A stretch of DNA of 52,154 nucleotides from Ignavibacteria bacterium (GTDB lineage: Bacteria > Bacteroidota > Ignavibacteria > Kapaibacteriales > UBA2268): NCBI GenBank assembly GCA_026417135.1, contig JAOADV010000003.1, positions 1-52,154 of the forward strand, in the 5' to 3' direction. A program made the position numbers and the translations under genes. Of the stretch, positions 3,935-50,617 are shown piece after piece; within the stretch, counting starts at the first letter, position 1, and the number at the start of each line of letters is the position of its first letter. Below the pieces are notes generated by a model. It was not told the origin of the DNA. It saw only the letters and a program-made list of their open reading frames with translations, and did no database searches.

Positions 3935-4696
3935 ATGAAAAAAACTCGACTTAGCACAGCCAAGAGAAAATTGATTGTAGTTTTTTTTCTTTCCAATTTA
4001 CTTCTTTATTACATTTCTATCAATAACCTATTCGCCCAAACTTTTGAACTTGGCAGTTGGAATATATTGCATTTAAAGTACAATCTTAATGAAAAATGGA
4101 GCATTTTCGGCGAAGCTCAATTACGCTCCCTAAAATTTTACAACGATTTTCACTACTACGAATATAAAGGTGGGCTAAACTTGTGGGTGCATAAATACTC
4201 AAAGCTTACTTTAGGCTTTGGTAGCTATCAAACTTACGGCGAAGGAGGTGATTTCGTCTTACCTAAAAACAATGATGAATTGAGAATTTGGCCACAGATA
4301 ATTCTTGTCCAATCAATAGAAAATCTAAAAATCGAACAACGTTATCGCGGGGAACTGAGATTTACTAGCAAAGGCTATCGAAATCGCTTTCGTTACCGTT
4401 TAGCATTATCTTATCCATTTGGGATAAGCGAAGAATCCAAACCTTTTCAAATCAGTTTAAGCGATGAAATTTTTTTCACGAATAAAGAACCATATTTCGA
4501 AAGAAACAGATTTTTACTTGCATTGAACTACAAGCTTTCCAATGCACTGACTTTACAAGTTGGATATTTACATCAATTCGACTATCGAATAAACGATGAA
4601 ATTGGTAGGGACTTTTTGGTAGTTGGTCTCTCCTACGAGATATTAAGAAAACCAGCAACAACCGAAGTTCAAGACGATGAAATCAGAGACAATTAA
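3935..4696 (+). CDS. DUF2490 family outer-membrane beta-barrel protein
   Basis: A 253-residue protein with a long N-terminal signal peptide (about residues 10-35, ending NNLFAQ). The rest alternates short hydrophobic and aromatic strands, for example WNILHLKYNLNEKWSIFGEAQ, LTLGFGSYQTYGEG, IEQRYRGELRF, FRYRLALSYPF and LTLQVGYLHQFDYRI, as expected of a small outer-membrane barrel. The pattern and the conserved QRYR..RFRYR core fit DUF2490, a Bacteroidetes-type family of unknown role. It stands alone between its own promoter region and a likely terminator. The function is unknown; a porin-like or structural role is only a guess. Confidence 0.75.
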   Translation: MKKTRLSTAKRKLIVVFFLSNLLLYYISINNLFAQTFELGSWNILHLKYNLNEKWSIFGEAQLRSLKFYNDFHYYEYKGGLNLWVHKYSKLTLGFGSYQTYGEGGDFVLPKNNDELRIWPQIILVQSIENLKIEQRYRGELRFTSKGYRNRFRYRLALSYPFGISEESKPFQISLSDEIFFTNKEPYFERNRFLLALNYKLSNALTLQVGYLHQFDYRINDEIGRDFLVVGLSYEILRKPATTEVQDDEIRDN

Positions 4697-4754
4697 AAAC
4701 AAACCCAATTGTTAGACCAAATATCGGCATTAGCATAAACTTTATTATTTCAAC

Positions 4755-4783
4755 AAATCTTGCTCTTAGGCAGATTTTATTTT
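4755..4783 (+). terminator. Probable intrinsic terminator after the DUF2490 gene
   Basis: AAATC-T-TGC (4755-4763) pairs with GCA-GATTT (4770-4777) around a 6-base loop, with one bulged T, and is followed by TTTTATTTTG. The stem is short and AT-rich, hence moderate confidence. Confidence 0.5.
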
Positions 4784-4805
4784 GAGAGTAACGATTTGAT
4801 ATATA

Positions 4806-4848
4806 TGTTTAACAAGTTTTGTTAAACATTAACACATTTGTTAAACAA
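4806..4848 (+). promoter_or_regulatory. Three palindromic TGTTTAACAA boxes before the amidotransferase gene
   Basis: TGTTTAACAA at 4806-4815 and TTGTTAAACA at 4819-4828 are exact reverse complements with a GTT spacer. A third box, TTGTTAAACAA, is at 4838-4848. The cluster lies 16 to 58 bases before the ATG at 4864, where an operator for a dimeric regulator would sit. The regulator is not identifiable from this window. Confidence 0.55.
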
Positions 4849-4863
4849 TTTAAGGGTGTTAAA

Positions 4864-5640
4864 ATGTGTAGATTACTTGGCTTAATTGCAAATCGAGCAG
4901 TCGACCTCGAATTCTCCTTAAGTAAATTTAAGAATCTCTCGATTAATAATCCAGATGGATGGGGCATTGGCTGGTACGAAAATAATTCTCCGCGAGTTTT
5001 CAAAGAAGGTTTATCGGCACAAGCCAAAAACTCAAAACTACCCTACTTAGCAAAGCAGGTTTACTCAAACATCATCATTGCTCATTTAAGAAAAGGTACG
5101 AATGGTTCAGCATCGGATGAGAATTCACATCCATTCAAATTGGGAAACTGGATTTTTGCTCATAATGGTCAGGTTGATAGAGATTCTTTGCTTCTGCATT
5201 TAAATGAAAACCACCAGAAGGAATTGAAAGGAGAAACTGATTCCGAAGTTTACTTTTACTTCATTCTACAATCAATTGATGAAACGAAAGATGTTGTGAG
5301 AGGAATAAAAAAGTCAATTGAGACGATTACTCAAAGTTCCTTTAAAGGATTAAATTTTTTATTATCGGATGGGAAATATCTCTATGCATTTCGGTATTCC
5401 AATAACTCGAGAAATTATTATTCTCTTTATTTACTTAAAAGAGAGCCAAGCAGAGATGGTCCATTTAATGTTCAATCGAAAGAAACACAGGCTTTGCTGC
5501 AAAGTAAAGCACTTAATAATGAAAAAGCAATTTTAGTTTGCTCAGAGAAATTAACAGATGAGAACTGGAAAGAAATCAATTTTGGGAGTTTGGTAATTAT
5601 TGACCAAAATCTAAACATTAAAAATGAACATATAATATAA
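4864..5640 (+). CDS. Class II glutamine amidotransferase (YafJ/EgtC-like)
   Basis: A 258-residue stand-alone Ntn-hydrolase glutaminase domain. I start at ATG 4864 and not at the in-frame TTG 4819, because these enzymes need cysteine as residue 2, exposed after methionine removal: the protein then begins MCRLLGLIAN. The glutamine-site motifs follow in order: DGWG (31-34), AHLR (73-76), SHPF (88-91) and AHNG (99-102). No synthase domain is attached, as in the YafJ, DUG3 and EgtC families, which hydrolyse small gamma-glutamyl compounds or support a partner. No EgtB or EgtD gene lies nearby, so the substrate is unknown. Three TGTTTAACAA boxes precede it, which suggests dedicated transcriptional control. 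Confidence 0.85.
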   Translation: MCRLLGLIANRAVDLEFSLSKFKNLSINNPDGWGIGWYENNSPRVFKEGLSAQAKNSKLPYLAKQVYSNIIIAHLRKGTNGSASDENSHPFKLGNWIFAHNGQVDRDSLLLHLNENHQKELKGETDSEVYFYFILQSIDETKDVVRGIKKSIETITQSSFKGLNFLLSDGKYLYAFRYSNNSRNYYSLYLLKREPSRDGPFNVQSKETQALLQSKALNNEKAILVCSEKLTDENWKEINFGSLVIIDQNLNIKNEHII

Positions 5641-44592: not shown

Positions 44593-45819
44593 TTATTCAA
44601 AACAGAAACTGGCAAAAGACACAATTGAACTATTGTCCTTATCGTCCCAGTAATCGTAAGCGAGAAAATGTCCTTTTTCGAACTGGCAAATTGAAAGCAA
44701 AGAATATATCGGAGATAAACCACAAATTTTAAATTTATTCTGAGTATCTTTTATCTCTTTGAAAAATGCCTCGGGGTCGCAATTCGAAATGTGTTCGATT
44801 AATCTACGGTCGTGTGAACGTAAATTTTCCAATTCCATAATACCGTCGAATTTGTCATTGAATTTTCGGCCTATGTGTCCAAAATCGACGCTGGCTATTA
44901 TTAGTGGATTTTCATATCTATCGTAAATGGTTTCCTTTAATGCTTTTAAATAGTTCCCGAGTTTCGGGTCGTCCTTTGGGAAATAATCGGTATAAAAAAA
45001 ATCATTAAAAGGACCGACTAATATCGGAACAATTCTTGGATTGGGTAAATTAAACACATATTGAATTAATATAACTTGAAACTCTATTGAATGTTCAAAG
45101 CGATGTGCTAATTCGTCTACTGTGATATCGGATTTGATTGCATTACTCACATTCGATAAGAAATCTTTATCATTGATAGCTACTCCCAAAGGGGTTTCAA
45201 AATCCTTTTGTGTAAACATAAAATAGTCCGAAGTACCGTAGTGTGATGTTCCAAGAATAATAAAAGCATCATATTTTTTGTCTTCGACAGATTTATAAGC
45301 TTCGGCATAAACACGAAGTGCAGGTTCACCAATTTGAAAATCAATATGAGGGACAATTAAGCCTTTAACATTCGATATTTTTCTTTCCCCTTTTGAGTAT
45401 GAAATCAAATTCGAAAGAGTTTTTTCCAAGGCTCTTTTCTCATTTGGATAAGAATTGCCAGCACAGATACTCGGTCTGAAAGGCTTATTCAAGTATTCAT
45501 CAATTTCATTTTTCAAAGCAAAGAAATATGGAGTTTCCAAATAACAAAGTATATCAAGGTCATTAATTAACTCAACGAAAATGTTCATAAACTGAGTAAC
45601 ATCGCCATCGTAATTTTGGGCAACTATTTTTTCAAATTGCTCCAAAGTTGTTTTTCCATCGAAGAAGGGAAATAAAACAGCAAATTCTTCTGGCAAAATC
45701 AAAGGTTGACTTGCTATCCTACTTAAATCGTAAAGAAGTATCTGTCTTGCTTTGCCTTCCTCGATTATTCGAAATGCAATTTCATTTCGAAGCTTCGGAA
45801 TTACTTGACTTTTGTCCAT
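44593..45819 (-). CDS. amrB: Memo-family protein (AmmeMemoRadiSam system protein B, long form)
   Basis: A 408-residue protein. Residues about 130-408 are the Memo fold, related to extradiol dioxygenases. H158 (IVPHIDF), H193 (GTSHYG) and C366 (KICGLSP) occupy the places of the metal ligands H49, H81 and C244 of human MEMO1; H243 in EHSIEFQ is also conserved. The first 125 residues are an extra domain that looks like a small winged-helix/PqqD-like module (LPEEFAVLFPFFDGKTTLEQF). In many anaerobes Memo genes accompany an AMMECR1-like gene and a radical SAM enzyme; neither is present here. The function is not established. It overlaps the preceding small membrane gene by 38 bp. Confidence 0.85.
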   Translation of the reverse strand: MDKSQVIPKLRNEIAFRIIEEGKARQILLYDLSRIASQPLILPEEFAVLFPFFDGKTTLEQFEKIVAQNYDGDVTQFMNIFVELINDLDILCYLETPYFFALKNEIDEYLNKPFRPSICAGNSYPNEKRALEKTLSNLISYSKGERKISNVKGLIVPHIDFQIGEPALRVYAEAYKSVEDKKYDAFIILGTSHYGTSDYFMFTQKDFETPLGVAINDKDFLSNVSNAIKSDITVDELAHRFEHSIEFQVILIQYVFNLPNPRIVPILVGPFNDFFYTDYFPKDDPKLGNYLKALKETIYDRYENPLIIASVDFGHIGRKFNDKFDGIMELENLRSHDRRLIEHISNCDPEAFFKEIKDTQNKFKICGLSPIYSLLSICQFEKGHFLAYDYWDDKDNSSIVSFASFCFE

Positions 45820-49487: not shown

Positions 49488-50141
49488 TTAACCAAAAGAA
49501 GACTTAGAAAATCCATCAGAAGAACGATGCATTAGTCTAAGTTTCTTATTTTTAAAATATGTGTATAATATAAACCCTAATGAACCCAAAACAATCAAGG
49601 TCATTAACAATTTACCAAAGTCAAAAGTTGGAGGATAATAGGAGATAGTTCCATCGGGATTTTCAACCTTAATCGGTTGAGAATAATAAAAAGCGGGATG
49701 AAAGGGTGTAAACCAAAGCCAAGATGTATGACCCAACAAATATCCCATCATCAGTCCACTTGCGAAATTACCGTAGTCATTTACAACAACATTTGGAGGA
49801 AGATTTGACATTTCCCGAGAGGTAATTTGCTTGCGAGGAATCCCATATTTACTTTGTAAGTTGAATTTGTTAACATTTGAAGAAACTGAACCCCCAAAAC
49901 TCCGTGGAGTAGTTTGTTGAGAACGAGGGGTAAAATTCTTGGGCGATGTCATTGGAGCATCGTAAGAACGAGTTCCAATTGGAGATTTTGTGCCACCAAA
50001 TGATTTGGGCGATGTCCGAAAACTACCACGACTTCCCCCAAAACTTTTGCCACCTTTCCTTGCAGAAAGTTCGTCTAATGGTAATAAGCCAATTAATAGA
50101 GAAATTATTAATGTCAAAATCAACCAACCTTTTATCTTCAT
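49488..50141 (-). CDS. Hypothetical membrane protein with SFGG-rich repeats
   Basis: A 217-residue protein of no family I recognise. It has an N-terminal signal or anchor segment (about 4-27, GWLILTLIISLLIGLLPL). Residues 28-90 are a low-complexity, basic stretch rich in Gly, Ser, Pro and Thr with repeated KSFGG/RSFGG and SPK or TPR units. A conserved-looking middle (NLPPNVVVNDYGNFASGLMMGYLLGH, cut here by me into one region near 113-138) is followed by an aromatic patch (SWLWFTPFHPAFYYSQPI), a transmembrane helix at about 175-195 and a basic tail. The pattern suggests a membrane protein with a flexible exported segment. Its ATG overlaps the stop of the 158-residue gene by one base, so the two form a coupled pair. 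Confidence 0.7.
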   Translation of the reverse strand: MKIKGWLILTLIISLLIGLLPLDELSARKGGKSFGGSRGSFRTSPKSFGGTKSPIGTRSYDAPMTSPKNFTPRSQQTTPRSFGGSVSSNVNKFNLQSKYGIPRKQITSREMSNLPPNVVVNDYGNFASGLMMGYLLGHTSWLWFTPFHPAFYYSQPIKVENPDGTISYYPPTFDFGKLLMTLIVLGSLGFILYTYFKNKKLRLMHRSSDGFSKSSFG

Positions 50142-50617
50142 TAGAATATCTCCTCTGTTTTTAAAACATCATTTTGATATCTGAAAGTAAAAGTTGCTCT
50201 GAAAACTGCACCTTCAGATATTTCGCCCTTATTAAAGAGCGAAGCAATGGAAGTTTTATTTTTTTTCGGGGCTTTGATATGAATGAATATGTTGACCAAG
50301 CCATCCAATATCTCACCATTGTAATACACTGTGGTATTTTCAATTTCACCATCGCTTTCGATAACAAGACTTTTCAACTGTCGTGCTTCCCATTCTGAAA
50401 ATGCAGGCTCTCGATAATTAATACTATCCAAATAGTCAATGAAAGGATTTTTTGTATATTCCTTTCCGTCCAGTCCCTTATAAACTAAAACAGAATCGAA
50501 GGTCCCATCTTCGTGTAAGTTAAGAAACAATTCGGTTAAACCAGCAATTTGCTGTCCGTTAAAATAAACAGCGGTCATTTCGATAGTTCCATTACTTTCG
50601 ATTGTTAAAGAAGGCAT
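50141..50617 (-). CDS. Hypothetical protein with internal duplication
   Basis: A 158-residue soluble protein without a signal peptide. Residues 3-34 and 83-114 are two copies of one unit (IES.G.IE.T.VY.NG ... GL), 16 of 32 positions identical by eye. The copies are 80 residues apart, so the protein is probably two similar beta-rich domains side by side, the second with a longer C-terminal strand region (AVFRATFTFRYQNDVL). No catalytic motif is seen. I do not recognise the family. It is coupled by a one-base overlap to the SFGG-repeat membrane protein, which suggests a shared job, perhaps a cytoplasmic partner of that protein. Confidence 0.75.
   Translation of the reverse strand: MPSLTIESNGTIEMTAVYFNGQQIAGLTELFLNLHEDGTFDSVLVYKGLDGKEYTKNPFIDYLDSINYREPAFSEWEARQLKSLVIESDGEIENTTVYYNGEILDGLVNIFIHIKAPKKNKTSIASLFNKGEISEGAVFRATFTFRYQNDVLKTEEIF

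What the first reader, a model, noticed from the sequence alone, without database searches (positions are those of the whole stretch)
49488..50617. Coupled pair of unrecognised genes: duplicated-domain soluble protein and SFGG-repeat membrane protein
The first encodes two copies of an IES.G.IE.T.VY.NG unit, the second an exported low-complexity region with a C-terminal helix. The one-base overlap implies a joint function. Neither matches a family I know.
Basis: partly seen in the sequence, partly recalled or inferred. Interest (0 to 1): 0.5.

Follow-up and report, generated by a model that had tools for sequence, protein, structure and literature searches.

The report
Order-specific cytosolic and membrane protein pair
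Two adjoining genes with no recognisable family, one for an acidic cell-interior protein built from a doubled domain and one for an exported, glycine-serine-rich membrane-anchored protein, are kept together across most of one little-studied bacterial order and were not found outside it, so they probably do one unknown job at the cell envelope.

Summary
Window 50617-50141 (-) encodes P1, 158 aa, two copies of a ~59-residue beta unit (profile self-match E 4e-15). Window 50141-49488 (-) encodes P2, 217 aa: signal peptide, disordered SFGG-rich arm, compact juxtamembrane module, one TM helix, short tail ending SSFG. They overlap by one base (TAATG). No family matches credibly. Both were found only in one order, that of Candidatus Kapaibacterium. 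Of 123 order genomes, 85 have both, 2 only P1, 4 only P2, 32 neither; in 82 of the 85, P2 lies directly downstream of P1. No third gene is conserved beside them across the order. P1 has a confident predicted structure (pLDDT 91) without a PDB match. Best explanation, inferred: P1 is the dedicated cytosolic partner of P2, most likely held at the inner membrane by P2's near-invariant tail, while P2's disordered arm samples the periplasm. An export-chaperone role for P1 is a main rival. No function was shown. A new pair of protein families; moderate interest.

The parts
50141..50617 (-). P1: 158-aa soluble acidic protein, no hydrophobic signal seen; two tandem ~59-residue beta units
   Evidence: repeat; model pLDDT 91.2, pTM 0.84; family in 87 of 123 order genomes
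50441..50617 (-). P1 unit 1 (residues 1-59), the more conserved copy
   Evidence: 20 of 56 columns (residues 3-58) at 90% or more identity
50144..50377 (-). P1 unit 2 (residues 81-158)
   Evidence: 8 of 58 columns counted outside the insert (82-117 and 137-158) at 90% or more
50210..50266 (-). Insert loop in unit 2 (residues 118-136), mostly low-confidence; the stretch 116-138 holds [LFMI]F in 51 of 61 relatives; absent in one subgroup
49488..50141 (-). P2: 217-aa exported single-pass membrane protein
   Evidence: family in 89 of 123 order genomes
50061..50141 (-). P2 signal peptide (residues 1-27, likely cleavage LSA|RK; AxA-like sites in many relatives)
   Evidence: hydropathy; alignment; the cleavage site is read from sequence, no signal-peptide program was available
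49881..50060 (-). P2 disordered SFGG/Arg/Ser/Gly-rich arm (residues 28-87), basic (11 K/R, 1 D/E in 28-90)
   Evidence: pLDDT under 50 for most of 28-84
49626..49880 (-). P2 compact juxtamembrane module (residues 88-172): YGxPRK, YGG...GYxxG, PFHPAFYYSxP, NPDGTxxxYPPTF (family motifs)
   Evidence: block pLDDT 87-95 over residues 91-200; alignment
49551..49625 (-). P2 transmembrane helix (about residues 173-197)
49491..49550 (-). P2 tail, predicted cytosolic, ending KSSFG; SSF in the last 7 residues of 53 of 55 relatives, [SG]SF in 55 of 55
   Evidence: alignment
50141..50141 (-). Shared base of P1 stop and P2 start (TAATG)

Best explanation
P1 and P2 are a dedicated two-protein envelope module of one bacterial order. 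P2 is exported by its signal peptide and stays in the inner membrane by one helix near its C-terminus: a flexible basic SFGG arm and a small folded module face the periplasm and a short tail ending SxSSFx faces the cytosol. P1, made just before P2 from an overlapping gene, is a soluble cytosolic protein of two fused beta units that binds P2, most likely through the near-invariant tail, so that P1 is held at (or released from) the membrane according to what the arm and module meet outside. Shown: genes, repeat, conservation, pairing, restriction to the order in the genomes searched. Predicted: topology, disorder, folds. Inferred: direct binding, the tail as docking site, sensing or anchoring.
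For: Pairing and co-occurrence: 85 both, 2 P1-only, 4 P2-only, 32 neither of 123 genomes; adjacent in 82 of 85; in the other 3 (G007, G041, G379) both are kept although apart. No third gene is conserved beside them across the order (20 long loci plus window; 66 short loci), so the natural partner of each is the other. Overlap of 1 or 4 bases in 35 of 57 loci. The tail motif is conserved (SSF 53 of 55) although the stretch between helix and tail varies in length and sequence, as expected of a short binding motif. Two hydrophobic stretches and basic residues after the second fit N-out, C-in. P1 has no signal peptide visible in its sequence and is unusually acidic: mean net charge -15.9, range -24 to -10, over 61; the 14 most acidic of 125 mechanically called ORFs of 110-260 aa in the window and 20 long loci are all P1.
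Against: No complex was modelled and no binding shown. P1 charge does not track tail charge (rho -0.01, n = 53; independent contrasts r 0.11, p 0.44). The correlation of P1 and P2 distances (0.63) is not corrected for shared ancestry, so it says nothing specific. G357 and G359 keep P2 without P1 (no P1 in the 3.7 and 5.2 kb upstream that I fetched nor elsewhere in the genome) and G025 keeps P1 without P2, so neither strictly needs the other. Longer P2-like paralogues with the same arm and a tail ending GSFS have no P1 beside them. The window's own P1 is the mildest in charge (-10).
Confidence: 0.4

Rival explanations
1. P1 is a dedicated export chaperone: being acidic and made first, it holds the basic, Arg/Ser/Gly/Phe-rich arm of the P2 precursor soluble until export, then recycles.
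For: P1 strongly acidic, P2 arm basic (residues 26-95 mean +11, range +6 to +23 over 55); P1 precedes P2 with frequent overlap; P1 charge correlates negatively with arm charge (rho -0.38, p 0.005, n = 53).
Against: The charge correlation is not significant once relatedness is allowed for (r -0.22, p 0.11) and was one of three tried. G357 and G359 keep P2 without P1. Does not explain the near-invariant tail after the helix.
Confidence: 0.22
2. The two genes are only co-expressed: the products work in one process without touching.
For: Co-expression alone would explain overlap and adjacency; no physical evidence exists; genomes with one gene alone exist.
Against: Both are kept in the 3 of 85 genomes where they have been separated, no other gene is conserved beside them across the order, and absences coincide (32 neither against 6 with one, of which 3 are cut by contig ends).
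Confidence: 0.22
3. The pair belongs to an envelope-stress (phage-shock-like) response, linked to PspC.
For: In the window's genus a PspC-family gene lies upstream on the same strand in 4 of 4 other species (open frame in G001 and G002; interrupted or split in G003 and G004; L062-L064).
Against: The window's own genome has no PspC match. PspC is in 64 of 123 order genomes, in no other listed one beside P1; it is missing in P1 carriers (e.g. G040, G341) and present in P1-less genomes (five of genus g17). One genus is one ancestral arrangement; the gap to P1 is ~340 bases in L062.
Confidence: 0.1
4. A toxin-antitoxin, immunity, phage-defence or mobile-element pair.
For: Small overlapping gene pair; patchy in family f1.
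Against: One copy per genome apart from fragments, order-wide presence, no relative confirmed in viral contigs, one meaningless hit in 50,697 phage records (E 0.4), no PADLOC match for three pairs tried. P1 (soluble, acidic, slowly evolving) and P2 (exported) are not shaped like such pairs.
Confidence: 0.03

Closest known systems
Bacterial Tim44-like membrane proteins (PF04280) and TPM/YgcG-type proteins (PF04536)
   Same: By recall only: signal peptide, Gly/Ser-rich stretches with SFGG-like motifs, one membrane helix, basic residues after it
   Different: Neither domain is reported for P2; P2 has its own juxtamembrane module and is tied to P1
NF041554 SA1362 family (NCBIfam)
   Same: 13 of 30 P2 relatives match, best E 5.5e-6
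   Different: The window's P2 does not match (E limit 10, 1); the matched stretch was not shown, and a membrane helix plus basic/Gly-rich composition is my guess at the cause
phrog_20714 (phage protein family of unknown function, 81 positions)
   Same: 8 of 30 P1 relatives match weakly (best E 8.4e-4; L040 E 0.0033 at residues 13-60, that is unit 1)
   Different: Window P1 has no PHROG match; P1 found no confirmed relative in viral contigs and none of note in phages
Order-level novel gene families of uncultivated taxa (Nature 2023, PMC10849945; passages seen)
   Same: Lineage-restricted, purifying selection, conserved adjacency; signal-peptide or membrane proteins common among them
   Different: P1 and P2 were not looked up there: 'Kapabacteria' does not occur in its main text and supplements could not be opened; coverage here (87 and 89 of 123 genomes) is below its 90% criterion

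Membership tests
DUF7320 (PF24005) | Score over Pfam's cut-off (27 bits) | tested here: not met
   P1 15.1 bits, E 0.024, residues 79-99; 3 of 30 relatives, best E 0.024
Vps26 (PF03643) and TcaA_3rd_4th (PF22820) | Credible match to P1 | tested here: inconclusive
   7 of 30 relatives each, best E 8.5e-4 and 0.0018; bits and cut-offs not shown for relatives; no match for the window's P1 at E 10
Bacterial Tim44-like | Tim44 domain PF04280 | tested here: not met
   No such match for the window's P2 at E 10; not among the 25 families shown of 35 matched by its relatives
TPM / YgcG type | TPM domain PF04536 | tested here: not met
   No such match for the window's P2 at E 10; not among the 25 of 35 shown
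SA1362 family NF041554 | Score over NCBIfam's cut-off across homologous residues | tested here: inconclusive
   13 of 30 relatives, best E 5.5e-6; bits, cut-off and aligned stretch not shown; window P2 none
phrog_20714 | Significant full-domain match | tested here: inconclusive
   Best E 8.4e-4 in 8 of 30; no match for the window's P1
Phage-shock (PspC) system | Conserved linkage to PspC | tested here: not met
   Linked only in the window's genus; no order-wide association seen by inspection
Known anti-phage defence systems | Match to a PADLOC model | tested here: not met
   No match at E 1 for P1 and P2 of the window, L060 and L013
Known solved folds | Structural match of P1 or P2 to a PDB fold | tested here: inconclusive
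   P1 best Foldseek E 0.2, VIA Z 3.4 over 76 residues, rmsd 6.1; P2 best E 2.1, Z 3.8 over 40 residues, rmsd 1.5, on the helix only
Toxin-antitoxin pair | One product toxic, relieved by the other | not testable with these tools
   Would need an expression test

The most novel reading that the evidence does not exclude
An order-defining envelope module of a new kind: a cytosolic protein made of a duplicated beta unit with a fold not in the PDB, which reads or loads a transmembrane protein carrying a disordered SFGG/RGG-like arm in the periplasm, with P1's own flexible [LFMI]F loop possibly competing with the SSF tail of P2.
Probability: 0.25. Interest if true: 0.7.

Novelty: categorically new. 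Interest (0 to 1): 0.42.

Why it matters
If right, a whole order of mostly uncultured bacteria carries its own envelope module that none of the libraries searched names, and the first gene may hold a new small beta fold made by duplication. It gives a compact, testable case of how a dedicated cytosolic partner and an exported disordered protein are inherited together. 'Categorically new' refers to the protein families; lineage-restricted families of unknown function are themselves numerous (PMC10849945, passages), and no new mechanism has been shown.

Tried and rejected
Family scans: Pfam (window P1 and P2; relatives), NCBIfam (window P1 and P2; P2 relatives; P1 relatives not scanned), PHROGs (P1; P2), PADLOC (three pairs). 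Only weak scattered matches; the strongest were SA1362 for P2 relatives (E 5.5e-6), Chorion_2 for one P2 relative (5.4e-4), phrog_26986 for two P2 relatives (7.8e-4), phrog_20714 (8.4e-4) and Vps26 (8.5e-4) for P1 relatives. I take them as chance or composition, which was not proved. PDB by sequence, P1 only: best E 0.053, rejected. Phage origin, P1 only: viral contigs none confirmed; phage records one hit, E 0.4. First genome-contig scan with one sequence found nothing; the alignment scan found 66 loci.

Relatives outside the order: G179 and G616 for P1; G103, G125, G256, G286, G288 for P2. I read the ORFs around G125, G103 and G286 and judged them unrelated by eye; G288 was fetched but not read, G256, G179 and G616 were not fetched. 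A second weak place in the own genome (E 0.12) was rejected.

T9SS link: SprA is in 122 of 123 genomes, so it does not discriminate. PspC: no order-wide association. Charge coupling of P1 and P2: not significant after allowing for relatedness. Mirror tree: uninformative. Fold searches gave nothing usable; this does not prove a new fold. Rows dropped: the overlap count (57 loci) leaves out L078, L093, L108 (start unclear), L121 (left out by me; its ORFs also overlap by one base), L088, L091 (P2 elsewhere), L113 (P2 cut by contig end), L124, L125 (P1 cut). Alignment A3 leaves out the short-loop P1s (L108, L115, L116, L121) and the cut ones; A4 leaves out 7 of the 61 P2 ORFs (L078, L092, L093, L096, L108, L109, L121).

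Papers: full-text searches 'Kapabacteria' (83 papers, 20 listed rows seen), 'Kapaibacterium' with 'hypothetical protein' and 'conserved' (none), 'SFGG' (the 10 rows shown of 99 unrelated), 'signature proteins' with Ignavibacteria/Chlorobi/hypothetical (8 rows of 42), novel families (6 rows). Passages seen in PMC10849945 and PMC9318685. None of what I saw names these proteins; that is not proof of absence.

Full report
Check of the observation. On the minus strand, 50617-50141 encodes P1 (158 aa) and 50141-49488 encodes P2 (217 aa). The coding strand reads TTCTAATGAAG, so stop and start share one base. P1's two copies align over 59 columns with E 4e-15 in a profile-profile comparison of its halves (61 relatives); the ~19-residue insert in copy 2 is missing in some relatives (L108, L115, L116, L121), which shows the plain two-unit form. 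P2 passes the hydropathy threshold only at residues 1-27 and 173-196, has three SFGx motifs and a basic arm. Comparisons with the same-genus loci L062-L065 give pN/pS 0.22-0.28 (P1) and 0.33-0.41 (P2); synonymous sites are near saturation.

Host. NCBI places Kapaibacterium in Bacteroidota, Eximiradiales; 'Kapaibacteriales' is the name I recall from GTDB.

Neighbours. Downstream is lon (TIGR00763, E 2e-284); upstream and divergent is hydF, cut by the window's end (TIGR03918, E 5e-141). These are not conserved beside the pair. Clustering the ORFs of the window and 20 long loci from the order put P1 and P2 each in 19 of 21 regions; the next largest cluster covered 8. The missing cases are L047 and L050 for P1 and L050 for P2, dropped by my overlap filter although present, and L055 for P2, which lies elsewhere in that genome (as L160). 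In 66 shorter loci P2 was clustered in 59 and P1 in 58; the next two clusters reached 15 loci each (single linkage, including antisense ORFs and genes on either side), the others 8 or fewer.

Distribution. An alignment scan of genome contigs found 66 loci, mostly titled Candidatus Kapaibacterium, Kapabacteria, Ignavibacteria, Chlorobiota or Bacteroidetes. In 123 genomes of the window's order, P1 is in 87 and P2 in 89: both 85, P1 only 2 (G025; G392, whose contig ends beside P1), P2 only 4 (G357, G359; G015 and G361, whose P2 is cut by a contig end), neither 32. In 82 of the 85, P2 follows P1 on the same strand; in G007, G041 and G379 both are present but apart. Outside the order: P1, 1 weak match beside 25 order genomes of 296 phylum genomes, and 1 beside 73 order genomes of 391 class genomes; P2, 5 weak matches beside 25 order genomes of 296, three of which I read and judged unrelated. 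P1 has no confirmed viral and no notable phage relative; P2 was not sought there. No phylum other than the window's was searched genome by genome, except that the genome-contig scan for P1 covers all.

Anatomy of P1. The predicted structure is confident (mean pLDDT 91.2, pTM 0.84) except the insert loop: strands 3-8, 15-19, 22-24, 27-35, 40-47, 53-56, then 82-88, 95-99, 107-115, 138-146, 152-156. Unit 1 is the better conserved (20 of 56 columns at 90% or more, against 8 of 58 in unit 2 outside the insert). Foldseek found nothing credible in the PDB (best E 0.2) or among viral models (best E 0.13); VIA-align's best was Z 3.4. The fold may be new, but a missed match is possible. P1 is very acidic (mean net charge -15.9 over 61; the window's own is the mildest, -10).

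Anatomy of P2. The model is confident (block means 87-95) over residues 91-200 and has pLDDT under 50 over most of 28-84. Conserved over 55 relatives are YGxPR, YGG, GY, PF, PA, YY, YP and the C-terminal SSF; SSF is in the last 7 residues of 53 of 55 and [SG]SF of 55 of 55. No PDB match. In three genomes of family f7 examined, a longer relative (337 and 346 aa where I listed the ORF) has the same arm, YGIPRKE, another middle part, a helix and an end in SFS, with no P1 beside it.

Mechanism. The simplest reading is a cytosolic protein (P1) and its membrane partner (P2). The tail is the only part of mature P2 predicted to meet the cytosol, and its end is conserved while the stretch before it varies, which suggests a docking motif. 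Charge opposition (acidic P1, basic P2) fits binding but cannot tell tail from arm: the correlation with arm charge (rho -0.38, p 0.005) becomes r -0.22, p 0.11 with independent contrasts, and the tail shows none. Binding is unproven.

Context tests. A PspC-family gene lies upstream of the pair in four other species of the window's genus, with an open frame in two and interrupted or split in two, and is not found in the window's genome; order-wide there is no association. SprA of the type IX secretion system is nearly universal in the order (122 of 123).

Verdict. Interest is moderate because function is unknown and lineage-specific unknown families are many (PMC10849945, passages); it would rise with a new fold or a shown P1-P2 complex.

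Noticed in passing
L166:4363-5376 (-), L167:4181-5221 (-), L165 open frame 3957-5180 (-): Longer P2-like proteins in family f7 share the SFGG arm, YGIPRKE motif, C-terminal helix and an end in SFS but have a different middle part; the two scanned (L166, L167) have no Pfam match. L166 and L167 lie between a GDP-mannose-dehydratase-like gene and an amino-acid permease-like gene (names by recall).
   Followed up: partly
L062, L063, L064 about 2204-2680; G003:C14:37733-37900; G004:C22:23531-23703: A PspC-family gene sits upstream of the pair in the window's genus, open in two species, interrupted or split in two, and not found in the window's own genome.
   Followed up: partly
L156 (G357), L157 (G359): Two genomes of one genus keep P2 without P1, although four others of that genus (G037, G053, G356, G358) keep both.
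   Followed up: partly
L069, L108: Records titled Desulfobulbaceae and Bradyrhizobiaceae carry this pair; L069 resembles the Ignavibacteriae record L070 (upstream sequence). The titles are probably wrong or the bins mixed.
   Followed up: no
window 44593-45819 (-): A MEMO1 / AmmeMemoRadiSam B family protein (TIGR04336, 123.8 bits, cut-off 26) with 114 residues before the matched part.
   Followed up: no
L072, L076, L079, L083, upstream of P1: In these loci the gene before P1 encodes a large protein whose end resembles a type IX secretion C-terminal signal (by recall; the longest member of its cluster begins like a subtilisin-type protease).
   Followed up: no
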